The translations under genes were made by a program, and so were the position numbers. This document shows, in pieces, positions 14,853 to 29,927 of a stretch of DNA of 64,000 nucleotides; positions within the stretch are counted from its first letter, which is position 1, and every line of letters begins with the position of its first letter. The notes under the pieces are model-generated. The model worked only from the letters and a program-made list of their open reading frames with translations, did no database searches and was not told where the DNA came from. The DNA lies in contig NZ_JAFIFD010000024.1 in the NCBI RefSeq assembly GCF_020832205.1, forward strand, positions 1-64,000. Direction: 5' to 3'. The DNA comes from Exiguobacterium sp. GTDB taxonomy: Bacteria; Bacillota; Bacilli; Exiguobacteriales; Exiguobacteriaceae.

Positions 14853-15308
14853 TCATTGATTTCGCGCGAGTCTGGCCAAAACGTGCATGGCATCGTCCGC
14901 ATCGAACGAGCTGTACCAACGGACGTCTTTTGAATCGAGGATACGGTAATGGCTACTGATGACGTTTTGTTGCATCACATAATCACCATCTGTCGAGATC
15001 TGCTTCCACCAGACCCGGCCGCCGAGCGTCTTCGATTTCGGCTCATAGGCGACCTCTTTAGCGAGCAATTTCACGAACTCGACCGGGTCGTCCCCAATCT
15101 CATTTAACAGAATTTCGCTATCATTGAAGAGCGTGCAGAGCGTGACGACCGTGCCCCAGTTGGCGACAGTCCGTTCTTTCTCGATTTGGATGAGCGTTTT
15201 TTTTGAGATGCCGAGCACCTCGGCCATTTCTTCTTGCGAAAACTGTTGCTCGATCCGAATCGATTTCATATGTTTTGAAATAGTTTGGATAAAATCGTTC
15301 TTATTCAT
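14853..15308 (-). CDS. XRE-family transcriptional regulator
   Basis: 151 residues. An HTH_3 domain is at residues 1-65: IRIEQQFSQEEMAEVLGISKKTLIQIEKERTV is the helix-turn-helix with the usual Q-E-A-L-GIS-T-IE pattern. The C-terminal part (about 75-151) is unfamiliar: WWKQISTDGDYVMQQNVISSHYRILD, possibly a sensor or dimerisation domain. The ATG at 15308 is preceded by GAGGTGG. It is first in an operon with two membrane proteins and probably represses its own promoter, where a 16-base palindrome overlaps the -10. Confidence 0.82.
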   Translation of the reverse strand: MNKNDFIQTISKHMKSIRIEQQFSQEEMAEVLGISKKTLIQIEKERTVANWGTVVTLCTLFNDSEILLNEIGDDPVEFVKLLAKEVAYEPKSKTLGGRVWWKQISTDGDYVMQQNVISSHYRILDSKDVRWYSSFDADDAMHVLARLARNQ

Positions 15309-15357
15309 GGTCCACCTCAATTGACTACTAAAAAGGATATTATGACAATAACTTACA

Positions 15358-15391
15358 AGTGTAATTTTACACTATACAAAATCGTTGTCAA
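15358..15391 (-). promoter_or_regulatory. sigma-A promoter with palindromic operator for the XRE operon
   Basis: Minus strand: TTGACA (15386-15391), 16-base spacer, TAAAAT (15364-15369). The 16-base palindrome AGTGTAATTTTACACT (15358-15373) covers the -10, the position expected for an autorepressor site. Confidence 0.75.
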
Positions 15392-15467
15392 TTAGAATCA
15401 ATGGGAATATAAAACATATTTTAAGGATGATGAGGTAAAATGAAGAAAAATAGAGGGAGGTAGTCAT

Positions 15468-15779
15468 ATGACGAAAGAAGAATTGCTGGCGTTATTACCG
15501 ACGTCCGAAACGGAAATTCGATTGAAGGATGCAGAAGGGCTGCCGCGTTTCGCATTCTTAAACGAACGCGACCGTTTTGACGAGGTACAAGGAGAGGTTT
15601 TCGATGAGGAAGAGCCGTGGCCAAACCATCTCCCCGTCATCGGATATGAAGATTTCCTCGGGGACCTCGTCTGTGTCGACTTGAAGACAAATGAAGTCGT
15701 CATCGTTGACCATGAGACAGGTGATCATGTCGAGCAAATCGCGCCTTCGTTTGAAGATTGGTTGCAGTCAGAACGATGA
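15468..15779 (+). CDS. small SUKH/SMI1-KNR4-like protein
   Basis: 103 residues, RBS GGGAGG. The second half (IGYEDFLGDLVCVDLKTNEVVIVDHETGDHVEQIAPSFEDWL) matches the C-terminal strand-helix part of SMI1/KNR4 (SUKH) domains, where a backbone of G-D-x-V-x-x-D, then VDHE and SFEDWL is usual. The N-terminal helical part of SUKH is short. SUKH proteins serve as immunity proteins against nuclease and other polymorphic toxins. The ATGA overlap with the next gene couples the two, and the pair look like relatives over the first 90 residues. First gene of a long plus-strand run of small unknown proteins. Confidence 0.68.
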   Translation: MTKEELLALLPTSETEIRLKDAEGLPRFAFLNERDRFDEVQGEVFDEEEPWPNHLPVIGYEDFLGDLVCVDLKTNEVVIVDHETGDHVEQIAPSFEDWLQSER

Positions 15780-16378
15780 CATGGGAAGACGTGCGAAAGT
15801 TTCTCCCGACCGAAGAGTGTCCCGTCACCATGACGACCTCTTCGGGTGAACGGCTGCCTGCGACGCTCCTCACTATTGAGGATGCGTCACACCTTCCATT
15901 ATCTCCGCTCGGGCAACGAATCGGATATGACGCTTCCGGTGATTGGCTCATGTACGGACGAGATGAGACGCTCTTTTTATGGAATGAGATGAACAATCAG
16001 ATCAAATCGATTCGGACGCCGATTGAGACGGTGCTCGACATTGCGCCGACAAACCAGCGGCTCATCGAACTCTTTAAGCAGGTGAACAGAGGAAAGCTGG
16101 CGACAGATGAACTTCCGAGGCGCCGGAACGTCCCGTCTCGCGAGGATCTTGTCGATTGGTTATGCGCTGTCCGTACAGGCGCGCTGACGTTCGAAAACGT
16201 CTCCGATTTGGCAGCGGACGCATTAGAGCGGACGGAAGACATGCACGTTGATGCGAGTGTGATGGACGGGCTGACGTTTTTGCACGGGGTCGACCTTCAG
16301 GTAGAGCCGGGTGTATATTGGCATGAGAGAGAAGAGCTCGAGCGTTGGATTGACGATCTGCGAGAAAGGGAGGGGTGA
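15776..16378 (+). CDS. putative immunity-type protein, two-part
   Basis: 200 residues, starting at the ATGA overlap with the previous gene. Residues 1-90 (MTWEDVRKFLPTEECPV, then IGYDASGDWLMYGRDETLFLW) parallel the preceding SUKH-like protein in order and spacing. Residues 115-200 (SREDLVDWLCAVRTGALTFENVSDLAADALE) form an all-helical domain resembling small immunity domains that start with SREEVxxWxxxLxxGxxS. No catalytic motif. Best described as a fusion of a SUKH-like half with a helical immunity-like module; this is inference from pattern only. Confidence 0.5.
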   Translation: MTWEDVRKFLPTEECPVTMTTSSGERLPATLLTIEDASHLPLSPLGQRIGYDASGDWLMYGRDETLFLWNEMNNQIKSIRTPIETVLDIAPTNQRLIELFKQVNRGKLATDELPRRRNVPSREDLVDWLCAVRTGALTFENVSDLAADALERTEDMHVDASVMDGLTFLHGVDLQVEPGVYWHEREELERWIDDLREREG

Positions 16379-16380
16379 CG

Positions 16381-17121
16381 ATGAGGATTTCAATCGAACA
16401 GTTGGGTCAAGGCGGGCTGACGCGCGAGATACCTAAATTGGATGCCTTGATTACGTTACTTCATCAGAAGATTCGGAGCTTGAAGCTTACACTTCCTTGT
16501 GACGCGTCGCTGACGGTTGTCTGTTGTGACACATTGTCGAGTGAATCGCTTCAGGCCATTGTGTTTCAGCATAACAGCACACCGGTGTATGTGGCACCAA
16601 TCAATGAAGAAGTCACCCCGGAACGGGCGCTGACCGAGTTGGAGCGTGCATTACGCTTCTTTGCACCGAACGTTTTCACGCCAGACGTGCGACATACGTT
16701 GCGCGATCACGTCGAGCGTCACGACTATACGTTCGAAGCAAACTTGATGCGAGCGAAAAATAAGAACGAGACGATTCGGGCGAACTTGATTGTCACGATA
16801 AGAGAGGATAAAGCTAGGGTATCGCTTGATTTATATGACATTCATGGTAAACGTCGCTGGATGAAACGGGAAGCCGTCATCGAGGTCGATGCATCGTCGT
16901 TCGATCGTTCCTTTCCGAGAGGGTATCGAATCTCTCGTCAGGTGTACAAGTTGCACTGGGATTCACTCTATACGTTGGATGTGATCGGGTGGCTCGGAGA
17001 CCGGTACAGATTTCGTGTCTACCCGAAACAAGACGGGAAGTGGTGCGTGACCGGTCAAACGCTAGAGCGGAAACGTTTAGAACGATCAGGCTTGGACAGA
17101 TTGGAAGGTGAGCGAACTTGA
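16381..17121 (+). CDS. conserved-looking protein of unknown function
   Basis: 246 residues. The ATG at 16381 is preferred over a GTG at 16375 because AGGGAGGGG is correctly spaced for it. No membrane segments or signal peptide. The N-terminal half is mixed alpha/beta (TREIPKLDALITLLHQKIRSLKL, LTELERALRFFAPNVF); the C-terminal half is beta-rich and basic (RANLIVTIREDKARVSLDLYD, GDRYRFRVYPKQDGKWCV). I do not recognise a family. It overlaps the next gene by four bases (TTGA) and follows the previous one after 2 bases, so it is inside the same operon of immunity-like proteins. Confidence 0.55.
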   Translation: MRISIEQLGQGGLTREIPKLDALITLLHQKIRSLKLTLPCDASLTVVCCDTLSSESLQAIVFQHNSTPVYVAPINEEVTPERALTELERALRFFAPNVFTPDVRHTLRDHVERHDYTFEANLMRAKNKNETIRANLIVTIREDKARVSLDLYDIHGKRRWMKREAVIEVDASSFDRSFPRGYRISRQVYKLHWDSLYTLDVIGWLGDRYRFRVYPKQDGKWCVTGQTLERKRLERSGLDRLEGERT

Positions 17122-17519
17122 AGAATGTACATGGTGGTTGGTTGTTTGCCCTTGGTCTAATCAGTTTATGTGTCTGGGCTGCGCTCGGGTACGGTGCATA
17201 TCGTTTCGTAACAGCAGGCGACACGATCGATGGTGTGCCAAAGGGCGAGCTCGTCTATGAATCAGTCTCACCTGACGGGACACAGACGATGTTCTTCTAT
17301 CGAACGAGCGGTGGGGCGACGACCGACTTTGCGATGTTAGGAGAAATCGAACACCGTGGGTCGACAGAACATGAGCGTATCTTCTGGGAATATCCATGCG
17401 AAGAAGTGACAGTCGTTTGGGAAGAAGGGCTCGTCACGATCAACGACGTGACGCTTGATCCGGTGCGCGAGGTGTATGACGCACGATACGGCACATATGA
17501 ACGTGTGAGAGACGACTGA
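17118..17519 (+). CDS. DUF5412-like membrane-anchored protein
   Basis: 133 residues from a TTG overlapping the previous stop (TTGA), RBS GGAAGGTGAG. One N-terminal span (about 8-30), then an extracellular domain with YESVSPDGTQTMFFYRTSGGATTDFAMLGEIE and IFWEYPCEEVTVVWEEGLVTINDVTLD. The SPDG...GGATT...GEI...WEY...W...V.ING layout matches DUF5412, a small secreted or anchored family in Bacillus. Function unknown. It is the only clearly membrane-associated member of this operon. Confidence 0.7.
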   Translation: MKNVHGGWLFALGLISLCVWAALGYGAYRFVTAGDTIDGVPKGELVYESVSPDGTQTMFFYRTSGGATTDFAMLGEIEHRGSTEHERIFWEYPCEEVTVVWEEGLVTINDVTLDPVREVYDARYGTYERVRDD

Positions 17520-17531
17520 GGAGGTCAAAAC

Positions 17532-18032
17532 ATGGGATGGTTCGAGCATTTAGATGGTGTGGCTTTTCGACGTGCGATCCGGTGCCGAGACGTACGGACC
17601 GTGCTTGCAATGGCTGCTACATATGATGACGACACGGTGCGCGATTTGTTTTTAACAGTTGGATATGACGAAGGTGACCTCTCGCTTTATGATTTTATCG
17701 TCGAAATCATTCAAATAGAAGAGACGGCACAATGGCATGAAATCGCCTCGCTTTTATTAAGCCAGCCGTTTTGTCACCATGCAGGCGCCTATGAGCGGAG
17801 TTTTTCACACGCGATAAGGGCCACTGAACTTGATCCTGACGATGTTCGGTTGAAAGAGTATGTATTATTCTTTCATGTCATTCTGGACAAACTGCTTAGT
17901 GAAGAGGAGGCGGAGCGATTGGCACTCCAAATCTTAAGCGTTTCCCCTTCTAGCCACGTCGCACGCCAACATGTCTATAGTGAAGCGGGATGGACGCAAC
18001 TTAGACGACTCGATTCAAAAACGACGTTCTAA
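17532..18032 (+). CDS. helical repeat protein of unknown function
   Basis: 166 residues, RBS GAGGAGG. Almost all alpha-helical by eye: DGVAFRRAIRCRDVRTVLAMAATYDDDTVRDLF resembles the MTH538/Imm-like helical start, and YERSFSHAIRATELDPDDVRLKEYVLFF reads like a TPR helix pair with its A-x-x-L-D-P turn. No signal peptide. It lies 12 bases after the DUF5412 gene and 24 before the next. A TPR-like adaptor or immunity function is plausible but unproven. Confidence 0.55.
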   Translation: MGWFEHLDGVAFRRAIRCRDVRTVLAMAATYDDDTVRDLFLTVGYDEGDLSLYDFIVEIIQIEETAQWHEIASLLLSQPFCHHAGAYERSFSHAIRATELDPDDVRLKEYVLFFHVILDKLLSEEEAERLALQILSVSPSSHVARQHVYSEAGWTQLRRLDSKTTF

Positions 18033-18056
18033 CAAGAAGACGAAAGGAGTATAACG

Positions 18057-18791
18057 ATGAACGAGACAATGTATGAAGCTGTTGATGCCGATTGGTGGGG
18101 TGAGGAGCTCATCACGTTACATCATGCAGATGGCGTTGCCATCGTGACGTGGCGAGCGAATACGATCAAACTCAAACTCGACCTGACCGACCCGTTCATC
18201 CGGGTGATCGACGAGGCGACATTTGTCATTGTCGACTTTACTCGCGATGATACAAAACCGAATGCTTGGACTGTTCGAACGGATGGCAGCATCGAGACTT
18301 CATTTCATGCCGGTCAATGTATCGCGTCCGTTGCCGTTGATACGTCAAGGATTTGGGTCGGATACGGCGATGAAGGGATTTTTGGTGAAGGCATCGCGAC
18401 GGAGGCGCTCGTTTGTTTTTCAAAGGGCGGTGACGTCCTGTTTCGCTATAATCCCGAAACGCGTAAAGCACCGATTATCGTTGACTGTGAGCACCTCGTT
18501 ACGACCGCTTCAGGCGTCTGGACTTTCCCGTCACTCGACGGTGAGTTGACACATATCGATCGTAACGGACAAATTATCGTCTATCGTACACCGAAAATGC
18601 TCCATGAAAGCGAGGCGATGACGATTGTCGAAGAAGCGGCTTATTTTGTGACGGGCGGCGAATTGTATCGTTGGGCGTTCGGTCGGCGTGAGAAGCCGAC
18701 CCGATGCGGGAGAGTGACCGGTGACCTGCGCGGGTGTGCTGGCGGGTTTATTCAAATTGACGGAACGGATGTCACGTTGCTTCGTGTGTGA
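18057..18791 (+). CDS. putative beta-propeller-like protein, unknown function
   Basis: 244 residues, RBS AAAGGAG. Repeated blocks end in strand-turn-strand patterns such as GVAIVTWRANTIKLKLDL, RIWVGYGDEGIFGEGIATEALVCFSKGGDVLFRY, GVWTFPSLDGELTHIDRNGQIIVY and AYFVTGGELYRWAF. This spacing is like WD40/YVTN-type propellers, with about four or five blades. No signal peptide, so cytoplasmic. No family name can be given. It is the sixth gene in the run starting at 15468, and about 90 bases separate it from the next gene. Confidence 0.55.
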   Translation: MNETMYEAVDADWWGEELITLHHADGVAIVTWRANTIKLKLDLTDPFIRVIDEATFVIVDFTRDDTKPNAWTVRTDGSIETSFHAGQCIASVAVDTSRIWVGYGDEGIFGEGIATEALVCFSKGGDVLFRYNPETRKAPIIVDCEHLVTTASGVWTFPSLDGELTHIDRNGQIIVYRTPKMLHESEAMTIVEEAAYFVTGGELYRWAFGRREKPTRCGRVTGDLRGCAGGFIQIDGTDVTLLRV

Positions 18792-18883
18792 GTCGTTCAG
18801 ACAGCAAAGACGAAAAACACATTCCCTCTTTTCACCAAAAAAAGTATACTTTATGTGATTGAATGACGAAATGAGGGATTGCA

Positions 18884-19600
18884 ATGCGAATCGAAACCAA
18901 TTTGCCAGGATTTACGTTAGAAACAATCGAAGCGGTCGAACAAGCGCTCGGGAGCCGTTTGCCGAACGGACTCCGGGAGGCGTGGCTTCACGACAATAAG
19001 TTTGAGGTCGGGGAGTGGTTCTTTTACCCAATCAAAGACGAACGCTTCTTCAATAAAACGTGGGACGACATCATCCGTGCGAACAGAGACGAGCGCGGGT
19101 TACCGGAAGACTTTATCACGGTCGCTGCGAACGGGAGCGGGGACGAGCTCGGTTTTTTGACTTCAGACGTCGAGACGATCTATATCTGGTGGCATGAGAC
19201 GGAGGAACTCGAGCGAGTTGCCGACTCAATCGATGCGTTCGTCGAAGTGGTCCGATTGGAGTCGGACGTGATCGAGCGATTCTGTGCGCGTGTCCTTGAA
19301 AGCGAGACGGTGTTCGGCTTATCGGCCGAAGCGGACAATGGCTGGGCATATGCGCCTTCAATCATTGAGGCGACAGACGTGTTGCTGTTCTTCTCGACTC
19401 GTGAACGCGCACTTGCTTGTAGGGCTGAGGAATGGGAAGACTATCAGCTTATCGAGTTGCCACTTGATTTGTTCGTCGCGGGCTGGTTGCCGAATATGGC
19501 GGATGACGGGTTGCTATGTGGATTGGATTGGTCGAGTGACTTGAAAGGGATGGAGTACGATCCCGAAACCGTCCTAGAAGCCATCGAAGAAGAAGACTAA
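18884..19600 (+). CDS. SUKH (SMI1/KNR4)-DUF2750 fusion protein
   Basis: 238 residues. Residues 1-110 are a SUKH domain: TLETIEAVEQALGSRLPNGLREAWLHDNK at the start, VAANGSGDELGFL and IYIWWHETEELERVADSIDAFV later. Residues 120-238 match DUF2750: ERFCARVLESETVFGL, GWAYAPSIIEATDVLLFFSTRERALAC, IELPLDLFVAGWLPNMADDGLLCGLDW and MEYDPETVLEAI. Both modules are known or suspected immunity domains, so this is a poly-immunity fusion. It has its own probable promoter region (18792-18883). No toxin is nearby. Confidence 0.82.
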   Translation: MRIETNLPGFTLETIEAVEQALGSRLPNGLREAWLHDNKFEVGEWFFYPIKDERFFNKTWDDIIRANRDERGLPEDFITVAANGSGDELGFLTSDVETIYIWWHETEELERVADSIDAFVEVVRLESDVIERFCARVLESETVFGLSAEADNGWAYAPSIIEATDVLLFFSTRERALACRAEEWEDYQLIELPLDLFVAGWLPNMADDGLLCGLDWSSDLKGMEYDPETVLEAIEEED

Positions 19601-19649
19601 TTTTATTTCAAATACCGAATTTGTAATTTTTAAAGGAGAAGTTGTAAGA

Positions 19650-20183
19650 ATGATGAACTGTTTTAAACAGAAGCGCAAGCATAGCGCCCAGTGTGCCTGC
19701 TCGGTCTGCCAGACGCCGATCGACACACCGCTCGGATATGGCTCACTCATGCCGACTTATATCGAGGAATTCTCTAAGAAAGAGATGAAGCGGCGCGTCG
19801 TTTTGACCGATGACGTCTGCGTCCTAGACGAGGAACATTTTTTTGTGAATGGTTGTCTCGAACTTCCGATTATCGGAGAGGACGACGTCTTCACTTGGAA
19901 CGTCTGGGTGTCACTCAGCGCGGATAATTTCTTTCGGATGCTTGACGCGTGGGAAGATACGGCTCGTGTCGAACTTGAACCGATGTTCGGTTGGTTCTCG
20001 ACAGACTTGCCCGATTATCCGGACACGATCAACTTGAAGACGAACGTCCATATTCGAGAGGTCGGCATGCGTCCTTACATCGAACTTGAGCCGACCGACC
20101 ATCCGCTCGCCATCGAGCAGCGAGTAGGCATCACACGTGAAGGGATTGAAGAACTAGCCCGTATTGTGGAAAGCGACGTGTGA
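19650..20183 (+). CDS. DUF2199 domain protein
   Basis: 177 residues, RBS AAAGGAGAAG. Four N-terminal cysteines in CACSVCQTP suggest a small zinc site. The body matches DUF2199: VVLTDDVCVLDEEHFFVNGCLELPIIGEDDVFTWNVWVSLS, MLDAWEDTARVELEPMFGWFSTDLPDYPDTINLKT and the closing IELEPTDHPLAIEQRVGIT. The family is found next to toxin/immunity loci but has no proven function. Its end overlaps the alternative start of the next gene. Confidence 0.85.
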   Translation: MMNCFKQKRKHSAQCACSVCQTPIDTPLGYGSLMPTYIEEFSKKEMKRRVVLTDDVCVLDEEHFFVNGCLELPIIGEDDVFTWNVWVSLSADNFFRMLDAWEDTARVELEPMFGWFSTDLPDYPDTINLKTNVHIREVGMRPYIELEPTDHPLAIEQRVGITREGIEELARIVESDV

Positions 20184-20197
20184 GAGGAGATTCGAAT

Positions 20198-20959
20198 TTG
20201 AATGATTACACGAGAGGGTATATTTTTGAGCTTTACTCAGGGAACGAGGTTTTTTCGGCAGAGCAACAAGCGATGATGGATTGCATTAATGCACACATTG
20301 AGGCAAAACAGTTCAAGCAGCTCGAGTATTACCTTCAACAGACACAGGGTATCGAACAGATGTTAATTGACCAGGTGATGATGGACCCGACCGATAAAAG
20401 CCGATGGGACTGGCTCATCGGGTATGAATTGATAGATACCATCGAAGATTTTGAACGGGTGAATCGCTTCGCGCTAACCGCCTATACATATCATCCGGAT
20501 GATCCGTTCTATTATGCGCTCGCTTTATATTGGATGGGTTGGAACGATTTTGTCATCACAGACGAGGATGTCGTCTTGGCAGAAACGCTCATCGAACGTG
20601 GGCCAGAAGAAGTAAGTGGCTTGCTGTGCATTGCGTTGGCGAGGAGAGACGTTAATCATTTCGATTATACATATGTTCAACGGGCGATTGAACGATGCCC
20701 GTGGGCGGTCGAACCATATATGAAGCTCGGAGAACATCGCATGCGTACTAATCCGAAAGAAGGAAAGATGCTCATCAAGCAAGGACTTGACCGTGTGAAG
20801 TATAAATGGGGATTTGATCAAAAGGGGCGCTGGTTCAATACGGGCTCACAATATTTCAATCCCAGCACGTGGCGACAAGACACGATCACTGAGCTGCTCG
20901 GTCTAAGCATGTCCCGTGACGAGTATAAAAAATATGAACGGATGATCAATAAAAAATAG
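20198..20959 (+). CDS. TPR-like protein of unknown function
   Basis: 253 residues from a TTG at 20198, chosen because AGAGGAGA lies 7 bases upstream; a GTG at 20180 overlapping the previous stop is an alternative. Helical throughout, with repeat-like sections FERVNRFALTAYTYHPDDPFYYALALYWMGW and FDYTYVQRAIERCPWAVEPYMKLGEHRMRTNPKEG, consistent with TPR/SEL1-type repeats. No signal or membrane segment. Last clear member of the 15468-20959 run; function unknown. Confidence 0.55.
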   Translation: MNDYTRGYIFELYSGNEVFSAEQQAMMDCINAHIEAKQFKQLEYYLQQTQGIEQMLIDQVMMDPTDKSRWDWLIGYELIDTIEDFERVNRFALTAYTYHPDDPFYYALALYWMGWNDFVITDEDVVLAETLIERGPEEVSGLLCIALARRDVNHFDYTYVQRAIERCPWAVEPYMKLGEHRMRTNPKEGKMLIKQGLDRVKYKWGFDQKGRWFNTGSQYFNPSTWRQDTITELLGLSMSRDEYKKYERMINKK

Positions 20960-20984
20960 TCACTTTTAAGAATGGAGCATTGGA

Positions 20985-21497
20985 ATGACCACAATCTCTT
21001 TAGCTACACCATCAGATGTGAATGCAATCGAACAACTTTATCTCGCCTGTAAAGACGATTTGCTCCACAGACAGATTTTCCAATGGGACGACCCTTACCC
21101 GAACCGCGCCTATTTCGAGGATTGTATCAAAGAAGGCTCCGTCTATATCATGAAAGACGGTGAACAGTTGCTCGGAATCGTCGTGCTTGATGAATGGCAA
21201 TCTGCGGAATGGAACGAAATTGAATGGCAAGGCGAGAAACCGCTCGTCATTCACTCGCTCATGGTCCATCCGTCGCAACAAGGTAAGGGAATCGGGAACC
21301 TCGTTCTCCACGCTTCGGAGCGTTTGGCAAAGGAGCAAGGGTATCACAGCATCCGGCTCGACAGTTTTTCGGGTAATGAAACTGCATGTAACTTTTATCA
21401 ACGCCATGGTTATGTCGAACGTGGTAGTGTTCATTTTGATTCAAAACCTAAAGGGCATGAACGATATATTTGTTTCGAGAAAGCGTTTGAAAACTAG
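20985..21497 (+). CDS. GNAT family N-acetyltransferase
   Basis: 170 residues. Motif A: LVIHSLMVHPSQQGKGIGNLVLHASERLAKEQG (Q/RxxGxG/A as QGKGIG), motif B: YHSIRLDSFSGNETACNFYQRHGYVERG. This is a typical small-molecule or protein N-acetyltransferase of the RimI/YjcF-like style. The N-terminal part (YLACKDDLLHRQIFQWDDPYPN) carries the W-D-x-x-Y-P pattern of the Bacillus GNATs annotated for amino-sugar or antibiotic substrates. RBS TGGAG. Followed by a terminator. Confidence 0.85.
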   Translation: MTTISLATPSDVNAIEQLYLACKDDLLHRQIFQWDDPYPNRAYFEDCIKEGSVYIMKDGEQLLGIVVLDEWQSAEWNEIEWQGEKPLVIHSLMVHPSQQGKGIGNLVLHASERLAKEQGYHSIRLDSFSGNETACNFYQRHGYVERGSVHFDSKPKGHERYICFEKAFEN

Positions 21498-21506
21498 CAT
21501 GAAAAG

Positions 21507-21531
21507 AATAGACCTCGAGTTGAGGTCTATT
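21507..21531. terminator. bidirectional intrinsic terminator
   Basis: AATAGACCTC pairs with GAGGTCTATT over a 5-base loop, between the GNAT gene and the convergent lipoprotein remnant. Confidence 0.75.
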
Positions 21532-21538
21532 GTTAATC

Positions 21539-21963
21539 TTATTGAGTTAAAATGATGATTTTTTCTGTCAACGCTGCTGAAACTGTATAAATGGAATGTT
21601 TGTCGTCTGCGCTCATAATCGCACTTCGTTCACCTGCTTCACCTAACCAGAAATAAAAACGTTGTTTGTCTTCGTTCGCATAAACAACATCTACATAGTG
21701 TGTAGGATTAGACATGTTCACAATCCCATCTTCTTTCGTGGCACTTTCAATGACTGCACGTAACGTTTCAATCGACGCATCATCATTTAAACTGATTACC
21801 TCACCGTCTTTTGAAATGCTAATCTTTGCGATCGAGTCTTTGATCTTCATCTTCTCCGCGCCATCTTCTGAAGATGGACTCGCTTCAGTTTGTTGAGCGA
21901 CTTTACTCGGATCATTTTCCTTTTGAGTGTCTTCCTGTGATTGACAACCTATAAGAATGGACG
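21539..21963 (-). pseudogene. lipoprotein gene truncated by IS insertion
   Basis: The frame encodes ILIGCQSQEDTQKENDPSK, a lipobox (L-I-G-C) followed by a Ser/Thr/Glu-rich linker, then a small beta-rich domain (ISISKDGEVISLND, VDVVYANEDKQRFYFWLGEAGERSAIMS) of about 110 residues. The start codon and most of the signal peptide are missing: sequence directly before the lipobox belongs to the right end of the TnpB element. The frame runs open into the element, but without a signal peptide, so no lipoprotein can be exported. The original role is unknown; the domain looks like a secreted inhibitor or sensor. Confidence 0.78.
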
Positions 21964-22041
21964 GTGAACTACTCACCACTTGCTTGCTTCGCAACCTGAA
22001 GTGGGAGCTTCTTGGGAAGACCGTGCTTTTGGTAGCCACGG
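21964..22041 (-). ncRNA. candidate TnpB guide (omega/reRNA) scaffold at element right end
   Basis: Reading leftward from the tnpB stop there are CCGTG/CACGG, CTTCCCAAGAAG and a longer CCACTT/AAGTGG stem (22004 to 21976), then GTAGTTCAC. In TnpB elements the right-end transcript forms the guide RNA scaffold and the flanking host bases act as guide. Here the guide would be lipoprotein sequence starting at about 21963. Inferred from position and folding only. Confidence 0.5.
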
Positions 22042-23175
22042 TTATGGGCCAAGCTCGTCGGGCAGTCCCTGCCCTGGGGTGTTTCGGTCGGCGAGGCGCA
22101 ACAGGTTGCGGCTCGCGTTGACGTCGCGGTCGTGGTGCGCGCCGCACGCGGCACACGTCCACTCGCGGATGTGCAGGCCCTTCTTGCCGCCGTTCTCGCC
22201 GCAGGCCGAACAGACCTGGGTCGAGGCGAACCACGGGTCGGCCTTGACGAGCGTCCGCCCGTAGAATTTACATTTATACTCGAGTTGCCGGACGAACTCG
22301 CCCCACCCGGCGTCCCCGATCGATTTCGCCAGGCGGCGGTCCCGCATCATCTCCCTCGGTCTCAGCGTCTCGACCACGACGACTTGGTTCTCGTCGACGA
22401 TGCGTCGCGACAGCTTGTGGAGGAAGTCATGCCGGCGGTCCCGTACTTCTTCATGCTTTTTGGCCAGAAGGAGCCGCGCCTTCTCGCGGTTCCGGCTACC
22501 GGGCTTCTTGCGGGCGAGCGTGCGCTGCGCCCGCTTGAGCCGCGCCTCGGCCTCCCGCAGGTTGCGCGGGTTCGGGATCTTCTCCGTGACGAGGTCGTCG
22601 TCCGTCATGGTGGCGAAGTGCGCGAGGCCGAGGTCGACCCCGATCTTATGTTCTGCCGGGACCCACGGCGCGTCGGCCTGCTCGACGAGGAGCGACACGA
22701 AGAATTTGCCCGTCCGTGTCATCGACACGGTCGCCGAGCGGATCTCGCCGTCGAGGCCGCGGTGCTGTGTGCAACGGATGAACCCGACCTTCGGGAGCCG
22801 GACCCGGTCCCCTTCGATGCGGATCGTGCCGTGCTGGTTGTTCGTCGTGTAGGACGCGCGCGACCGCCGTCTCGACTTGAACACTGGGAAGCCGGCCGTC
22901 CCGGCGGAGAACTTCGCGAACGCCGCGTCGAGGTGCAGCTTCGCGTTCGCGAGCGCGAGGCTGTCCGCCTCGCACAGGAACGGGAACAGCGGCTTGTAGG
23001 AGGCCGGCGTCGGCGGCTTGCGCCTCGGGCCGCCGCCCGCCTTCGCCTCCTCGTGGATGGCGATGCGGTCCTCGAGCAGCTTGTTGTAGACGAAGCGGGC
23101 GCAGCCGATCGTCTTGACCAGGAACTCGGCCTGCGCCGCCGTCGGGTGGAGCCGATATTTGTAGCCCTTCAGCAT
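22042..23175 (-). CDS. tnpB: TnpB RNA-guided endonuclease (OrfB_IS605)
   Basis: 377 residues, ATG at 23175 with RBS GGAGGG. N-terminus MLKGYKYRLHPTAAQ is the typical TnpB start. RuvC-like catalytic residues are intact: Asp in IGVDLG (about 181), Glu in VVVVETL (about 270) and Asp in HDRDVNAS (about 351). The zinc ribbon CSACG...CAACG lies between the last two. TnpB is a guide-RNA nuclease that cuts at the empty donor site and helps retain IS200/IS605 elements; it does not catalyse transposition, so this copy needs a TnpA in trans. Strong GC bias and GC-rich codons point to recent transfer from a high-GC host. Confidence 0.92.
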   Translation of the reverse strand: MLKGYKYRLHPTAAQAEFLVKTIGCARFVYNKLLEDRIAIHEEAKAGGGPRRKPPTPASYKPLFPFLCEADSLALANAKLHLDAAFAKFSAGTAGFPVFKSRRRSRASYTTNNQHGTIRIEGDRVRLPKVGFIRCTQHRGLDGEIRSATVSMTRTGKFFVSLLVEQADAPWVPAEHKIGVDLGLAHFATMTDDDLVTEKIPNPRNLREAEARLKRAQRTLARKKPGSRNREKARLLLAKKHEEVRDRRHDFLHKLSRRIVDENQVVVVETLRPREMMRDRRLAKSIGDAGWGEFVRQLEYKCKFYGRTLVKADPWFASTQVCSACGENGGKKGLHIREWTCAACGAHHDRDVNASRNLLRLADRNTPGQGLPDELGP

Positions 23176-23315
23176 GTTTCTCCCTCCTCTCGGCCGATGA
23201 TCGTGATGAGCGCCTTCCTCATCCGATACCCGCGGAGGGGGAGAGGAAATCTGACGGAATAACGAACTTATGTTAGTCATATCTGTCACAGGGATATCCA
23301 AAGGATTTGCTAGCA

Positions 23316-23380
23316 GGCGATTCATCTCCCACCTATGCTGGGCTTCGCCCGAGACGCTTGGAGGTGGGGGAATTCTCGCC
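23316..23380. repeat. long imperfect palindrome, IS200/IS605-end-like
   Basis: GGCGA...TCGCC encloses CCCACCT/AGGTGGG and a central GGGC-TTC-GCCC hairpin. Such terminal palindromes define IS200/IS605 and PATE elements. It sits at host-like GC, about 60 bases outside the GC-rich TnpB element, just before the RBS of the oxidoreductase gene. It may be the end of a second, older element or part of the present element's left end. Confidence 0.6.
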
Positions 23381-23414
23381 AAATTTAGTAAAAAAAGAAA
23401 CGAGGAGACGACTT

Positions 23415-24395
23415 ATGATTCGATTCGGCATCATCGGCACGAACTTCATCACCGACACCTTCGTAGACACAGTCCAACAAATCAATGGTGGAGAAGTGAC
23501 GGCCGTCTATTCAAGAACGGCTGAGCGGGCGGACACATACGCCGCTCAACATAACATCTTACATACGTTCACATCGCTTGAAGCGATGGCCACGAGTGAC
23601 GTCATCGACGCGGTCTATATCGCGAGCCCGAACTCGCTACACGCCGAGCAGAGCATCCTGTTCATGCGTCACAACAAGCACGTTCTCTGCGAGAAACCGT
23701 TCGCCTCGAACGTCCGCGAGGTCGACGCGATGCTCGAGACGGCACGTGCGCATGACGTCGTCTTGCTCGAGGCGCTTCGCAACTTGTTCATGCCGAACTT
23801 CGACGTGTTGCGTCAAGAACTTCATCGCATCGGTCCGGTCCGGCGCGTCGTCTTGAACAAATCGCAGTACTCGTCACGCTATGACCTGTATAAACGTGGG
23901 GATAACCCGAACACGTTCAACCCGGACTTCTCGAACGGGTCACTCATGGATCTCGGCGTCTACTGTCTCGGACCCGCGCTCAAACTGTTCGGTCGACCAA
24001 ATACGGTATTGGCGAACGCCATCAAACTCGAGTCGGGTGTCGACGGCAGCGGCTCGGCCATCCTATCGTATGACGGGATGGACATCGTCGTGCTCCATTC
24101 GAAGATTCACGGCTCGAACTCACCGTCTGAAGTTATTGGGGAGACGGGGCGTATTTTGATTGACGACATCGCCACGTTCGACCGGTTGACGTTCGAAGGG
24201 CGTGACGGGACGACCGAGGAGCTCGTCAGCGAACAAATAAACCCGATGGCGTTCGAGATTCAGGAGTTCATTCATTTAATCGAGGCGGGGGAGCGGGAGA
24301 CATCGCGTCATACGCATGACGACATGCGCATGCTTGCCGATGTCATGACCGATATGCGCCGCCAAATCGACGTCCGTTACCCGGCAGATGAATAA
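23415..24395 (+). CDS. Gfo/Idh/MocA family oxidoreductase
   Basis: 326 residues from the ATG at 23415 (RBS GAGGAG); the frame is open upstream through the palindrome, but that part is not coding. Rossmann fold start MIRFGIIGTNFITDTFV (GxxGxxF variant), then YIASPNSLHAEQ and HVLCEKPFASN (EKP motif that positions the catalytic Lys), and the C-terminal Gfo/Idh domain from about residue 125 (MDLGVYCLGPALKLFG). These enzymes are NAD(P)-dependent sugar or dihydrodiol dehydrogenases. The exact substrate is open. Followed by a terminator. Confidence 0.88.
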   Translation: MIRFGIIGTNFITDTFVDTVQQINGGEVTAVYSRTAERADTYAAQHNILHTFTSLEAMATSDVIDAVYIASPNSLHAEQSILFMRHNKHVLCEKPFASNVREVDAMLETARAHDVVLLEALRNLFMPNFDVLRQELHRIGPVRRVVLNKSQYSSRYDLYKRGDNPNTFNPDFSNGSLMDLGVYCLGPALKLFGRPNTVLANAIKLESGVDGSGSAILSYDGMDIVVLHSKIHGSNSPSEVIGETGRILIDDIATFDRLTFEGRDGTTEELVSEQINPMAFEIQEFIHLIEAGERETSRHTHDDMRMLADVMTDMRRQIDVRYPADE

Positions 24396-24396
24396 A

Positions 24397-24434
24397 AACA
24401 AGCCTCGAGTGCTGATATGCGCTCGAGGCTTGTT
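24397..24434. terminator. bidirectional intrinsic terminator
   Basis: AACAAGCCTCGAG pairs with CTCGAGGCTTGTT. Ends the Gfo/Idh gene and, on the other strand, the small membrane ORF and dynA unit. Confidence 0.85.
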
Positions 24435-24533
24435 TCATTCTTTGTTCGTGATATATAGGTGTCGGATGAACAGACCGAGCGCGATCGTCATGATCACGGC
24501 CGGAATCAAGCCGACAAGGAGTATAGATCCCAT
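24435..24533 (-). CDS. 32-residue single-span membrane peptide
   Basis: ATG at 24533, 4 bases after the dynA stop, with AAAGGAA 8 bases upstream inside the dynA 3' end. Encodes MGSILLVGLIPAVIMTIALG, then FIRHLYITNKE: one hydrophobic span and a short basic tail. The stop abuts the terminator hairpin. The tight packing between dynA and its terminator supports a real microprotein cotranscribed with dynA. Family unknown. Confidence 0.55.
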   Translation of the reverse strand: MGSILLVGLIPAVIMTIALGLFIRHLYITNKE

Positions 24534-24537
24534 GCGT

Positions 24538-27500
24538 TCATTCCTTTCCGAGCGCTCCGAGGCGCTGTCTCATGTCCGTGAACGACTGTCCGTCTGAGAG
24601 GACGCTCAGCTCGCCGGAGACGAGTTCACGCACTTCATCGTTCCACGCGGCACTTAGGCTTTCCTCGAGTCCGATGAGCTCACGAGACGTCCGTTCGATT
24701 TCTCGGGCACCGATTGCTTCGAGCTGTTCACGGACAGCAAGGCGCAAGCGTGCGCTCAAGTCGTCCCGGAGCATCGTCCGGCCGTCTCCTTCGAAGAACT
24801 GGCTCGTGTTCTTGAACTGTTTTAACACCGGACGGAAAGCGGTTTGGTCAAACGACACCGTCTCGACCGTGTCACGCAGCCAGTCGATCGTCACGTCCTC
24901 GTCGAACGCGAACGTCGGCAACAGCGGACGTAACTTCTCAGTCTCTTGCGCGATGAGTCGGGCCGTCTCGTTCTTCAAAAACTTCTCAAGCCGATATTTG
25001 AACACTTGGAGTTCTTGATGGACGTCATAAGCGTACTTGTCGAGCGTGCGGACGAGGGCGCGTTCTAGACTCGCCTTCGAACCGTCCACTTCGACCGGAT
25101 GGAACGTCTCTTTGACGAAGTCCGACAAGCGCAGGAGCGACCGCGTCTCGAGGTGGGCAAGCAGCTCCTTCGCTTCCCGGGCGAACGGTGCGTCAAGTGA
25201 CGTGACCGGGAGAACTTGCCCACTTTGTAACCGTTCGAGTCGTTCGCGACGTTTCGCTTTGACACTCGCGTCGGCGTCTGCTTCCCGAACGACCTCTTCG
25301 AACGAGGCGAGGAGTGCGGCCGTCTCTTCCTTGATGCGAAGCGCGTTCGCTTGGCGCAGGTCGTGGTCGACGAACTGGCCGAGCCGTTCAGCGAAGCGGT
25401 CGAATCCTTCGTCGCGCCCGTTCATGGCGTTTCGGCTCGAGATCGGTAACACGGAAGGGTGTCTCACGCCAAGCTTCGTCAATTGCTGGGCCACATAGTC
25501 GGTCACGGCATCCCGTTCTGTCTCGTCCGCTGCCAAGTCAGAGGCGTTGACGAGGAAGAACATCTGGTGGTCGCCCGTCCCTTGGACACGTCCGAGCTGG
25601 ATGACGAGTTCACGGTCGGCCTCGGTAAAGGCGTGATTGTAATACGTCACGAACAACACCGCATCAGCGTCGCGCATATAGCCGAACTGGACCTCGCTAT
25701 GTCGGTTGAACTGCGAGTCGGCGCCCGGTGTATCGACGAAGATGATGCCGCGCTCGGCCCAAGGGGAGTCGACGTACAGCTCGATTTCTTTGACGATGCA
25801 ACTCTTCGCTTCTTCCGTGACGAACGAGGCGAACGTGTCATAATCGACCGTCTCCGACGTTCCGAGATGTTGGAGTGGGGCGTGTTTCACCGCGTTCACG
25901 AACGGATGGTCGAGTGCGAGCGTCTCGAGCGTCGTCCCGTAACTGTTTAGTTCTGTCTCGAGCTCGTCGCGCGATTTGAACGTGATCGTGGCGCTCTTGT
26001 GCGCCCGTCCGTTCGGCGGGACGATTTTCGTGATTGAGGCGGTGAGCGGGTTCGGCGACGTCGGCAACACCGTCTCGCCGAGTAGGGCGTTCAACGTCGA
26101 CGATTTGCCGGATGAGAACGCACCGAAGATGGCGAGCGTGTATGTTTCCGATTCGGCGCGTTCGAGTTTGCGGCGGAGCGACTTCACCCGGGACGTGAAC
26201 AGTGGATGGCTCTCTAATATTTCACATACCGCATATTCATAAGAAAAATCAGACAAAAAAGTCGTAAAAGTATCATCCAAAATCGCCGTCGGTGCAACTT
26301 CTTGTTGCTGCTGGGCGCTTTGTTGCTTCGGTAAATGTTCGACATCGACGTAGTGACGGACTTCGAGTTCCTCAATTCGTTCCGTCAATAGTGTTCGTTC
26401 GGTAAAAGCACGAAGTGAAGCTTGTCGCTCAAGGAGGCGACGTCTCATACCGAGCGTGTCCAACATATCGTAAAGCGAATCTTGTTCGGTCGTGATTCGT
26501 TCAAGCCGATCCGCACCGTCTGTCTCGAGATACGTTTCGACCGACGTGACCCACGGGTCGGACGCTTTCGTCACCCAGGCGGCGAGGGCGGACTCGATGT
26601 CCCGGCTGAACTGAAGGACCGTGTCCCCGCTAAGCGAGGCGCCGCTTTTCACTTGGTCGGTGATGAGCGTGGCCGGCGCTTCTGGTAACGTGTCCGGTCG
26701 GGCGAGTGCCGTTTCAGGTAACTTCAAGTCGCGAATGATGTCTTCTGCGTATTTGATTAAGTGCGGGCGCAAGTTCGTGTCGAGCAGGCGGTTGAACTCT
26801 TTGACGGCGATCTCTTCACGGCGCGACCGTTCTTGCCGCGTCTTGTCTTTTGAGAAGAAGAGGCCGACCTTGAACGTCGGGACACAGCTTTCCAAATAGT
26901 CCCGCAACAGTTCACGGAACTCGTAGTTCATGATTGGGGCGCTGGCGACGATTGGGGCCTGGTGGCGGAAGAACTCGCGGCGGAACGCACTGAGCCAGAC
27001 GTGTTTTTTCTCGAGTCGCTGCAGGCGGGCCTGAATCTCGGTCGGATGTTTCTCCACATCGGGCAACTGCTCGAGTGAACGGACGTACATCTGTTCCGAA
27101 CGCGCGAGGAGCGTGTCCGTCAACTGCTCGGCACTTTCGAGACGATTGTCCCTTGCTGTAGTGATGACTCGTTCGACGTATGACCGTAGCCGCGGCACTT
27201 CGTTTTCCGTATGGTCGAGATCACGGAGCGAGATATAGAATACGTCATCCGGCTCGATGTCGTGGTGTGCGAACGCTGCCGCGAGCGTCTGTTTGAATGA
27301 CGAGAACGACAACTCGCTCTCATCATGCTTGTCGATTTGGTTGATGATGATTGAATACGGACGTCCCTCGGCGCTAAACTGTTTCATGAGTTGAATATTT
27401 TGTGCTGATTGGACGTGGTTGTAGTCCATCATGAAAAACAAGTGATCCGCGAGGAACAATGAGCGTTCCGTCGCCTGACGGTGGCGCTCATCGGTCGAAT

Positions 27501-27924
27501 CGATGCCTGGCGTATCCATCAAGACGACGTCGTCCCCGAACGGGAAGCGGGGCAGGGCGTATTCGACTTCTTTGATTTCCTCAATCTTGCAATAGTCGCT
27601 CAACCGAGAGAGTCCCTCTGCCTCGAGTTGAATCCAATCCGTGTCATTGATGGCAACCGAGGCCCCCGTCGCACCGCTTCGAAGCGTGACGATGTTGGCG
27701 CTCGTCGGAATCGGGCTCGTCGGCAAGACGCCGTCTCCTAGCCAGTTGTTAAGCAGTGTCGATTTTCCGGCGGAGAAGTGACCGCAGACGGCGATCCATA
27801 TCTCATCACGTGTCACTTTACGAAGTGCCGTCCAGGCAAGACGGGCCATATCGGTCTCATCTTGCGTTTCAAACAGGTCGGTCAATTGCGCGAGGCGCAT
27901 ACGTTGTTCGTTCAAAGTCCCCAT
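24538..27924 (-). CDS. dynA: double dynamin-like GTPase DynA
   Basis: 1128 residues, close to B. subtilis DynA (YpbR, about 1190). Two complete GTPase modules: G1 GHFSAGKSTLLNNWLG (about 48-63) with DTPGID and NQIDKHD; and G1 GAFSSGKSSTLNALLG (about 600) with DTPGADSQF and NASDLA. Each is followed by long helical stalk regions with paddle-like hydrophobic stretches. DynA tethers and fuses membranes, binds the cytoplasmic face and protects against membrane pores, phage release and antibiotics. It overlaps nothing but is 4 bases after the NmrA-like gene, so they may be one transcript. Confidence 0.93.
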   Translation of the reverse strand: MGTLNEQRMRLAQLTDLFETQDETDMARLAWTALRKVTRDEIWIAVCGHFSAGKSTLLNNWLGDGVLPTSPIPTSANIVTLRSGATGASVAINDTDWIQLEAEGLSRLSDYCKIEEIKEVEYALPRFPFGDDVVLMDTPGIDSTDERHRQATERSLFLADHLFFMMDYNHVQSAQNIQLMKQFSAEGRPYSIIINQIDKHDESELSFSSFKQTLAAAFAHHDIEPDDVFYISLRDLDHTENEVPRLRSYVERVITTARDNRLESAEQLTDTLLARSEQMYVRSLEQLPDVEKHPTEIQARLQRLEKKHVWLSAFRREFFRHQAPIVASAPIMNYEFRELLRDYLESCVPTFKVGLFFSKDKTRQERSRREEIAVKEFNRLLDTNLRPHLIKYAEDIIRDLKLPETALARPDTLPEAPATLITDQVKSGASLSGDTVLQFSRDIESALAAWVTKASDPWVTSVETYLETDGADRLERITTEQDSLYDMLDTLGMRRRLLERQASLRAFTERTLLTERIEELEVRHYVDVEHLPKQQSAQQQQEVAPTAILDDTFTTFLSDFSYEYAVCEILESHPLFTSRVKSLRRKLERAESETYTLAIFGAFSSGKSSTLNALLGETVLPTSPNPLTASITKIVPPNGRAHKSATITFKSRDELETELNSYGTTLETLALDHPFVNAVKHAPLQHLGTSETVDYDTFASFVTEEAKSCIVKEIELYVDSPWAERGIIFVDTPGADSQFNRHSEVQFGYMRDADAVLFVTYYNHAFTEADRELVIQLGRVQGTGDHQMFFLVNASDLAADETERDAVTDYVAQQLTKLGVRHPSVLPISSRNAMNGRDEGFDRFAERLGQFVDHDLRQANALRIKEETAALLASFEEVVREADADASVKAKRRERLERLQSGQVLPVTSLDAPFAREAKELLAHLETRSLLRLSDFVKETFHPVEVDGSKASLERALVRTLDKYAYDVHQELQVFKYRLEKFLKNETARLIAQETEKLRPLLPTFAFDEDVTIDWLRDTVETVSFDQTAFRPVLKQFKNTSQFFEGDGRTMLRDDLSARLRLAVREQLEAIGAREIERTSRELIGLEESLSAAWNDEVRELVSGELSVLSDGQSFTDMRQRLGALGKE

Positions 27925-27928
27925 CCCC

Positions 27929-28549
27929 TCATGATTCCGTCGTAATGCCGACGCGGTGTCCTACATATTTGTTTTCTTGCCAGACGTCAAGGACGAGGTC
28001 GGCGACGTCATCGCGTGAGATCGGTCCGGAATGGAGCGTCCCGAGCTCGTCTTGAGTGATGACGAGTTTGCCGACTGACGGCTCGTCAATCAACTGTGTC
28101 GGGCAGACGACCGTGTAGTCGAGACCTGAAGCATCGAGCAACTCATACGCATGAGCATGGTCCTCGGCCGCAGTGGTCATCGAGCGCTTCGACTCCCGTG
28201 TCTGGAAGCGATAGGCGTCGGTGCCTTGGGCCTGCAGGATGCCGGCCGTCCCGACCGTGACGATGCGTGTGACGCCAAGTTGTCGCATCGCGTCAATCAC
28301 GAGCGGAGTGAAACGGGACAAGACGTTTTGTTTATCGGTCCCTAGCGCTGAGAAGACGACGTCTGCTGTGCTGATCGTCTCGACGACTGCCTCTTGATCG
28401 GTCGCATCCCCTAATATGACCGTGACGCCTTCACGTGATTCGATCGGTTGACGAGACAAGAGTCTCACCTCATGACCGGCTTCTACTAATTTCTCGAGCA
28501 ACCGCATCCCCGTGCGGCCGCTCCCTCCGAATAAAGCAATGGTTGACAA
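27929..28549 (-). CDS. NAD(P)-binding NmrA/SDR-like protein
   Basis: 206 residues. Rossmann start TIALFGGSGRTGMRLLEKLVEAGHEVRLLSR (GxxGxxG as GGSGRTG), then DVVFSALGTD and RIVTVGTAG. It belongs to the NAD(P)H-binding atypical SDRs (YwnB/YhfK-like, flavin-reductase or NmrA-like). No YxxxK pair is obvious, as usual for this subgroup. Upstream of dynA by 4 bases. Function not defined; often redox sensing or quinone/flavin reduction. Confidence 0.82.
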   Translation of the reverse strand: MSTIALFGGSGRTGMRLLEKLVEAGHEVRLLSRQPIESREGVTVILGDATDQEAVVETISTADVVFSALGTDKQNVLSRFTPLVIDAMRQLGVTRIVTVGTAGILQAQGTDAYRFQTRESKRSMTTAAEDHAHAYELLDASGLDYTVVCPTQLIDEPSVGKLVITQDELGTLHSGPISRDDVADLVLDVWQENKYVGHRVGITTES

Positions 28550-28691
28550 GTAAACCCCTCCCCATCAAGATGAAAGAAAATATCCAACGCCATCATACCA
28601 CGGAAGCGCTCTCGAAACAGCGTTTCAAGGCTTCATGCGTTTCGATGTTTCACTCGCTGACAAGTGGGATACAAAAAAAGAAGACGTGTAA

Positions 28692-28726
28692 AAGGGAGGA
28701 AGACAGTTCGCTGTCGACACCGCATG
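28692..28726 (+). promoter_or_regulatory. RBS separated from start codon by a tetraloop hairpin
   Basis: The only RBS in range, AAGGGAGGA (28692-28700), is 23 bases from the ATG. Between them GACAG-TTCG-CTGTC (28702-28715) forms a stable TTCG-capped hairpin; folding it away leaves about 9 bases between RBS and ATG, the normal distance. Confidence 0.6.
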
Positions 28727-29815
28727 AGATTTGGAGCTAGAACGATTAAAACCGGGATTTCTGTCGCCCTGGTGTTACTGATTGCTGAAGCGTTTCAATT
28801 TGAACAAATCGTCGTCCCGGCACTCGCCGCATCACTCGCTTTACTGCCGTCGGTATATCAGACCGGTGTCCGGCTTTTAGAAGAGATGAAAGGGAACTTG
28901 ATTGGGGCGTTGCTCGCCGTCTTCTCCTTACTGTTGACACCGAACCCAACGCCAATCGCGATCGGCGTCGTCATCATCATCGCCATCTCGATTCTTCTGT
29001 TCTTGAACCTTGAATCGACGACACGGACCGTCATCTTGACGACGATCTTGATTATGGAAGGGGCGAGCCAATCGGAAATGCCGATTTGGATGTTCGCCGG
29101 GGAACGTTACTTGCTCATCATGATGGGGATCACGGTCGCGCTTCTCGTCAACGCGCTCTTGTTCCCGCCACGCTATGAGCGGAAGCTCGAGGACGAGATC
29201 ACGACGGTATTCCAAATGGCCGTCCGCATCGCGCGCCTATTCTCAGAGACGGACGGAGGACGTTCTTCGTTTGAGTCGCTCGAAGAGACGAAAAAGAAAC
29301 ATCGTAGCTCAAAGACGACATATGATTATTTTGAAGAAGAGATCAAAGCGAACCGCTGGCTCGAGAAGAAGACTCCGATCTATCGTCGGGCCGTCCTCAA
29401 GTCGAAGATGATCGACACGAACAGTGCCGCCATCCACGTTCTTGACAAGCTTCACGACGACTATTTAACGATCGAACATCTGCCGCCACAACTTGAAGAA
29501 GAATTGCTACGTCACATTCGGCACTTGTTGCGCCGTCATGAACGGCTGTTCTCGGCGTATGAACTCGAGAACGAGCATATCATCGACCGGGAAGAAGATC
29601 TCATCCATGAGAACTTCGATTTCGCCAAACTGATGATTGAGAAGATGCGGGATGAAGAGGAAGACCTCATCTTGACCGTCGTCCCGCTCGTCGCAACGAT
29701 GACGGACTGGGTCAAGGCAATGAACGAGCTCGAACGCTACCTCATCACAGAGATGAAAAAGCATGGGGACAACTTGAAAGTGGAACCACGCAAGAAATGG
29801 TTCTTTGAAGATTAA
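28724..29815 (+). CDS. aromatic acid exporter (FUSC-like) family protein
   Basis: 363 residues. MRFGARTIKTGISVALVLLIAEAFQ starts the ArAE_1 membrane domain with about four to six spans up to residue 150 (PALAASLALLPSVYQT, GNLIGALLAVFSLLLTP, VALLVNALLFPPRYE). The cytoplasmic C-terminal half (about 155-363) is helical and very charged, matching ArAE_1_C, as in B. subtilis YqjA. The family resembles half-size FUSC/aromatic-acid efflux pumps; transport has not been shown for these. ATG at 28724 is the first sensible start; its RBS is unusual. Terminator follows. Confidence 0.85.
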   Translation: MRFGARTIKTGISVALVLLIAEAFQFEQIVVPALAASLALLPSVYQTGVRLLEEMKGNLIGALLAVFSLLLTPNPTPIAIGVVIIIAISILLFLNLESTTRTVILTTILIMEGASQSEMPIWMFAGERYLLIMMGITVALLVNALLFPPRYERKLEDEITTVFQMAVRIARLFSETDGGRSSFESLEETKKKHRSSKTTYDYFEEEIKANRWLEKKTPIYRRAVLKSKMIDTNSAAIHVLDKLHDDYLTIEHLPPQLEEELLRHIRHLLRRHERLFSAYELENEHIIDREEDLIHENFDFAKLMIEKMRDEEEDLILTVVPLVATMTDWVKAMNELERYLITEMKKHGDNLKVEPRKKWFFED

Positions 29816-29821
29816 CGGATT

Positions 29822-29852
29822 GCCAAGGCGCAGAAGCGGCTTGGCTTTTTTT
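29822..29852 (+). terminator. intrinsic terminator
   Basis: GCCAAG pairs with CTTGGC around a 12-base loop, followed by TTTTTTT. Confidence 0.85.
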
Positions 29853-29927
29853 ATGGAATAAAAAGGAATATATAAAGTTGCTGCTGAATGTAAAAGGTAT
29901 CAGAAACACAAAGAGGAGGGAATATTT

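What the first reader, a model, noticed from the sequence alone, without database searches (positions are those of the whole stretch)
21539..23255. High-GC TnpB element inserted into a lipoprotein gene
The block is far richer in G+C than all neighbours, has an intact RuvC D-E-D set and zinc ribbon, no tnpA, and abuts ILIGCQSQ at the lipobox of a lipoprotein whose start is gone. It seems recently arrived from a high-GC host. The guide would be the lipoprotein sequence after 21963.
Basis: partly seen in the sequence, partly recalled or inferred. Interest (0 to 1): 0.65.

Follow-up and report, generated by a model that had tools for sequence, protein, structure and literature searches.

The report
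Stranded TnpB element in lipoprotein gene
A known kind of small mobile element, carrying an RNA-guided DNA-cutting gene (tnpB) but no transposase, landed in the start of a lipoprotein gene of an Exiguobacterium; it belongs to an old GC-rich family of that genus rather than being a new arrival from a high-GC microbe, and a small deletion beside it has probably frozen it in place.

Summary
A 1,425-bp IS200/IS605-type element without tnpA lies on the minus strand at 21964-23388: left end, intact 377-aa tnpB, omega-RNA/right end TTCAC. An Exiguobacterium relative (G009, sp. s122) has the uninterrupted lipoprotein gene; its allele reads TTTAA|CCTCCATTCTTATAGG exactly where our element ends TTCAC|CGTCCATTCTTATAGG, so insertion point, TAM (TTTAA) and guide are fixed by comparison. 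All 26 other full copies checked are preceded by TTTAA; ours alone by TTTTA, because about 172 bp (lipoprotein promoter, start, most of the signal peptide) next to the left end are missing.

The inferred origin fails. Closest relatives (about 90% DNA identity) are in other Exiguobacterium species and equally GC-rich; tnpA-bearing cousins in the genus are about 50% GC and sampled relatives outside it 25-52%. High GC arose within the genus.

Most likely it is a tnpA-dependent, now stranded element whose TnpB, with a lipoprotein-derived guide, would cut element-free alleles. RuvC D-E-D, zinc ribbon, covarying omega-RNA and dN/dS near 0.2 support function; activity is untested. New member of a known kind. 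Side result: tnpB is under purifying selection even between copies shared by two species at the same site.

The parts
21964..23388 (-). whole tnpB-only IS200/IS605-type element (1,425 bp), first base C at 23388, last base C of TTCAC at 21964
   Evidence: ends fixed by 26 other full copies in the genus and by the empty allele in G009
23389..23393 (-). left flank TTTTA, in place of the TTTAA that precedes every other full copy; product of the adjacent deletion
   Evidence: 26 of 26 other full copies have TTTAA here; G009 allele
23316..23380 (-). left-end imperfect hairpin GGCGAGAATTCCCCCACC...GGTGGGAGATGAATCGCC
   Evidence: conserved in 24 copies; conservation only, no compensatory changes
22042..23175 (-). 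tnpB, 377 aa plus stop; RuvC D181/E269/D351, zinc ribbon C322/C325/C341/C344
   Evidence: Pfam, ISDra2 TnpB structures 8h1j/8bf8 E about 4e-77, NCBIfam guided_TnpB, residue check, dN/dS 0.16-0.28
21964..22123 (-). predicted omega-RNA (reRNA) scaffold: 3' end of tnpB plus right end, ending UUCAC
   Evidence: alignment of 31 copies, consensus fold with compensatory changes, single-sequence fold z = -2.3
21948..21963 (-). predicted 16-nt guide CGTCCATTCTTATAGG, taken from the lipoprotein signal peptide/lipobox
   Evidence: begins directly after TTCAC; matches G009 empty allele next to TTTAA with one mismatch at guide position 2
21539..21963 (-). remnant of the disrupted lipoprotein gene (from ...SILIGCQSQ to the stop)
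   Evidence: 97% identical to the intact gene in G009; G009 ORF of 161 aa by mechanical start, 156 aa from its ATG

Best explanation
This is a tnpA-less IS200/IS605 element of an Exiguobacterium-specific family. A Y1 transposase acting in trans inserted it 3' of a TTTAA in the signal-peptide codons (F-L-T) of a lipoprotein gene. The 3' end of tnpB and the right end make an omega-RNA whose guide (CGTCCATTCTTATAGG...) is the lipoprotein sequence just past the insertion. TnpB with this guide would cut element-free alleles (TTTAA + guide target) but not its own locus, where TTCAC replaces TTTAA, and so favour keeping the element. Later, or during insertion, about 172 bp left of the element was lost. 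This removed the lipoprotein promoter and start and changed the TAM to TTTTA. With no transposase found in the genome, the element is probably stranded. Shown: ends, empty allele, deletion relative to it, intact tnpB, conserved RNA fold, family. Inferred: TnpA in trans, RNA production, cleavage, immobility.
For: Empty allele in G009 with TTTAA|CCTCCATTCTTATAGG against TTCAC|CGTCCATTCTTATAGG here, and flanks 97% (lipoprotein side) and 91% (oxidoreductase side) identical. 26 of 26 other full copies have TTTAA before the left end and TTCAC at the right end, whereas TTTAA occurs at 92 of 128,000 positions of the window. tnpA+tnpB cousins in the same genus share the left end (87-90%) and the right end. 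TTTAA/UUCAC is the tested TAM/scaffold end of Sulfolobus TnpB7, and TTCAC there blocks self-cleavage (PMC11043419). Guide use and donor-joint cleavage are shown for ISDra2 (PMC8612924). RuvC and zinc residues intact, dN/dS 0.16-0.28, RNA covariation in helix 2. The only perfect TTTAA + target match in 19 genomes of the genus is the G009 empty allele, when guide positions 1-2 are left free.
Against: No expression or cleavage data. The nearest relative with the empty site is another species, so the deletion and the insertion cannot be ordered in time. A tnpA hidden in contig gaps (57 contigs) cannot be excluded. G009's allele differs from the guide at position 2, which might weaken cutting. TTTTA may still be a partly active TAM (about 60% loss for -2A to T in SisTnpB7).
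Confidence: 0.85

Rival explanations
1. The element came recently from a high-GC host.
For: GC 0.64 overall and GC3 0.90, far above neighbours; absent at this site in the nearest relative that has the site.
Against: Nearest copies (88-90% DNA identity) are in Exiguobacterium with GC 0.61-0.63; a sister tnpB-only group in the genus has 0.54-0.57; tnpA-bearing cousins about 0.50; nearest outside the genus 0.50-0.52 (Trichococcus) and the other sampled non-Exiguobacterium relatives 0.25-0.43. No relative above 80% identity on plasmids.
Confidence: 0.04
2. TnpB here is no longer selected as a nuclease and the locus is a decaying relic; the intact frame is only recent survival.
For: No tnpA found in the genome, altered left flank, single copy of this subfamily, adjacent deletion.
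Against: Intact frame, all catalytic and zinc residues, intact RNA fold, dN/dS 0.16-0.28 against relatives. This selection could predate the insertion; the terminal branch alone was not separated.
Confidence: 0.3
3. The left-flank deletion was made by the transposition machinery (TnpA using a second TTTAA in the oxidoreductase leader, or faulty repair after a TnpB cut) rather than by unrelated slippage.
For: In G009 the missing segment is bounded by TTTAA at both ends (L026 858-862 and 1029-1033); the deletion ends exactly at the element.
Against: The junction TTTTTTTA fits a plain deletion between short T-runs plus one substitution as well or better; only one case is known; the segment was not found elsewhere in the genome, which fits both.
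Confidence: 0.25

Closest known systems
ISDra2 TnpB (Deinococcus radiodurans, IS200/IS605)
   Same: same protein family over almost the whole length (E about 4e-77), RuvC triad, zinc ribbon, right-end-derived guide RNA, TAM next to left end
   Different: TAM TTGAT there (PMC8612924), TTTAA here; ISDra2 carries tnpA, this element does not
SisTnpB7 (Sulfolobus islandicus IS605)
   Same: TAM TTTAA and scaffold end UUCAC directly before the guide (PMC11043419)
   Different: archaeal; its sequence was not compared here
ISAam1 TnpB
   Same: TAM TTTAA (PMC12908284)
   Different: sequence not held here, so not compared
tnpA+tnpB IS605 elements of Exiguobacterium (L058-L060, L105)
   Same: left end 87-90% identical and right end conserved; tnpB 62-64% aa identical
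   Different: carry a Y1 tnpA between left end and tnpB; about 50% GC

Membership tests
IS200/IS605-group TnpB (RNA-guided endonuclease) | OrfB_IS605 and Cas12f1-like_TNB domains with RuvC D-E-D and C2C2 zinc ribbon | tested here: met
   NCBIfam guided_TnpB cut-off passed; the narrower IS200_TnpB model scores 406 against a cut-off of 425
IS200/IS605-group TnpB (RNA-guided endonuclease) | guide RNA from tnpB 3' end and right end | tested here: inconclusive
   conserved sequence and fold with compensatory changes in 31 copies; transcript not shown; no Rfam match
IS200/IS605-group TnpB (RNA-guided endonuclease) | RNA-guided cleavage at a TAM | not testable with these tools
   needs biochemistry
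IS200/IS605 element | subterminal hairpins, fixed left-flank motif, no target duplication | tested here: met
   TTTAA before the left end in all other copies; no duplication against the empty allele; the window copy itself has lost the motif (TTTTA)
IS200/IS605 element | own Y1 transposase (tnpA) | tested here: not met
   none in the element or genome; hence filed as a tnpB-only (IS1341-like) derivative
TnpB-derived nuclease-dead repressors (TldR) | lost RuvC active site | tested here: not met
   D181, E269, D351 intact

The most novel reading that the evidence does not exclude
In this genus tnpB is selected for a job done at its fixed site, apart from transposition. Two pairs of copies at the same site in different species have dN/dS 0.15 and 0.17 (dS 0.16-0.18); of the four genomes involved, three have no detectable tnpA and the fourth has one. 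The window copy, immobilised by its own flank deletion, would then be a frozen nuclease that still eliminates intact lipoprotein alleles arriving by recombination.
Probability: 0.2. Interest if true: 0.55.

Novelty: new member of a known kind. Interest (0 to 1): 0.28.

Why it matters
It is a clean natural example (occupied and empty allele, TAM, guide) of a TnpB element that has lost its transposase and its normal left flank. The genus holds a graded series: tnpA+tnpB elements, tnpB-only elements with rising GC, and end-only remnants, with tnpB frames intact in 27 of 28 full-length copies. That makes it testable whether TnpB is kept by selection on its nuclease alone once transposition has stopped.

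Tried and rejected
High-GC donor: rejected after genus-wide, genome-collection and plasmid searches. Known RNA family at the right end: no Rfam match at E <= 1 nor at gathering level in 15000-30000. Relocation of the missing 172 bp elsewhere in the genome: not found (the same query was not run on a genome known to hold it, so the empty answer is weak). Recent burst of the family: within-genome copies differ by at least 2.7%, so no. Shared insertion at this site in other genomes: none; only G009 shares this lipoprotein at this place. A first dN/dS script failed on masked bases and mis-set frames and was replaced. No structure was predicted, since sequence similarity to solved TnpBs is strong.

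Full report
What is there. The window lies in a genome whose same-genus relatives are Exiguobacterium. The block at 22000-23250 is 65-69% G+C against 40-57% on either side, and tnpB has a GC3 of 0.90 against 0.34-0.72 in neighbouring genes. It encodes one intact protein on the minus strand, 22042-23175, 377 aa, with the HTH_OrfB, OrfB_IS605 and Cas12f1-like_TNB domains. It matches ISDra2 TnpB structures over residues 3-361 (E about 4e-77), with D181/E269/D351 at the RuvC positions and a C2C2 zinc ribbon.

Ends. Comparison with full-length copies in other Exiguobacterium genomes and a realignment fixes the element at 23388 (left end, C) to 21964 (right end...AGTAGTTCAC), 1,425 bp. All 26 other full copies have TTTAA immediately before the left end and all end in TTCAC; their outer flanks are unrelated apart from two orthologous pairs. 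The finding's interval covers the lipoprotein remnant as well and leaves out the left end.

Empty site. G009 (its contig length equals that of Exiguobacterium sp. s122) carries the lipoprotein uninterrupted: MMNKKMSLLLSPVFLTSILIGCQSQ..., 97% identical to the window remnant over 561 bp with the adjoining acetyltransferase gene. At the insertion point G009 reads GTGTTTTTAA|CCTCCATTCTTATAGG, and the window reads AGTAGTTCAC|CGTCCATTCTTATAGG. So the element sits 3' of TTTAA without target duplication, as IS200/IS605 elements do, and the predicted guide is 21963 downward. A search of 19 genomes for TTTAA plus the guide target, with guide positions 1-2 left free, gives one perfect hit, the G009 empty allele.

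An adjacent deletion. On the left the window does not continue into the lipoprotein start. It continues into the leader of the GFO/IDH/MocA oxidoreductase: CTCCTCGTTTCTTTTTTTA|CTAAATTTGG. In G009 that leader reads CTCCTCGTTTCTTTGTTTAATTTATG..., and about 172 bp separate it from the insertion TTTAA. Those bases (promoter region, ribosome site, start and most of the signal peptide) are absent from the window and were not found elsewhere in the genome. The result is a left flank of TTTTA, unique among the copies. In Sulfolobus TnpB7, whose cognate TAM is TTTAA and whose scaffold also ends UUCAC, a -2A to T change costs about 60% of activity and TTCAC abolishes cutting (PMC11043419). That both ends of the lost segment in G009 carry TTTAA is suggestive, but a plain deletion between T-runs explains the junction as well.

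Guide RNA. The last 160 nt of 31 copies align at 88% mean identity. They share a fold of six helices with 99% of cells paired; helix 2 changes on both sides in two pairs (CG to UA, AU to GC). The compensatory cells follow one main split between groups, so they are few independent events. The window RNA folds better than shuffles (z = -2.3). Rfam has no match. The left-end hairpin is conserved but shows no compensatory change.

Origin. The nearest copies are 88-90% identical at the DNA level and sit in other Exiguobacterium species with element GC 0.61-0.63. A sister tnpB-only group in the genus has 0.54-0.57, and the tnpA-bearing elements of the genus, which share the left end, have tnpB GC 0.47-0.51. 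Outside the genus the closest are Trichococcus (56-57% aa, GC 0.50-0.52); the more distant ones sampled have GC 0.25-0.43. The rise in GC thus happened inside Exiguobacterium and says nothing of a high-GC donor. The genome scan looks for peptide patterns and may miss some relatives, but a near-identical donor would carry them.

Mobility and selection. No Y1 transposase was found in this genome; 9 of 19 genomes have one, and the transposase-bearing cousins share the element ends, so trans-mobilisation is the natural inference. Within-genome copies differ by at least 2.7%: there is no sign of a recent burst. tnpB is nevertheless kept: 27 of 28 full-length copies have a frame open through the catalytic residues (the C-terminal stop shifts between copies), and dN/dS is 0.16-0.28 between the window and relatives. 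Two pairs of copies share flanks on both sides across species (L046/L050 in G002/G017 and L051/L052 in G014/G013); their dN/dS is 0.15 and 0.17 with dS 0.16-0.18. G002, G013 and G017 have no detectable tnpA and G014 has one. Selection on a fixed copy is the simplest reading; gene conversion between copies is an alternative not tested.

Mechanism. By analogy with ISDra2 (PMC8612924) and plasmid drive by IS200/605 TnpB (PMC11870625), TnpB with the lipoprotein guide should cut element-free alleles and so lead to their replacement by the occupied one. Here that would act against an intact lipoprotein gene entering by recombination. None of this activity was tested.

Verdict. A real tnpB-only IS200/IS605 element, a new member of a known kind, with a well-defined empty allele and an unusual flank deletion. 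The high-GC-donor story is not supported.

Noticed in passing
L046/L050 and L051/L052 (G002, G017, G014, G013): Two tnpB insertions are shared at the same site by pairs of species, with tnpB dN/dS 0.15 and 0.17; three of the four genomes have no detectable Y1 tnpA.
   Followed up: partly
G006:C2:289655-289754, G006:C2:310929-311119, G015 short matches: Very short copies hold only left-end and right-end pieces, like end-only (MITE-like) remnants of the family.
   Followed up: no
window 21400-21961 against G009: Lipoprotein plus acetyltransferase end is 97% identical to G009 while the surrounding region is about 85-89%: a patch of recent exchange or stronger constraint.
   Followed up: no
L055 (G000:C19), L057 (G000:C6), L054, L056: The genome holds a second tnpB subfamily with left flank TTTAT and right end TTCAA, plus solitary left ends near contig starts.
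   Followed up: partly
window 5253-9717: Where the window has an ABC-transporter/FtsX-like permease pair (5440-9379), the syntenic G009 interval instead holds a tnpA+tnpB IS605 element (L105).
   Followed up: no
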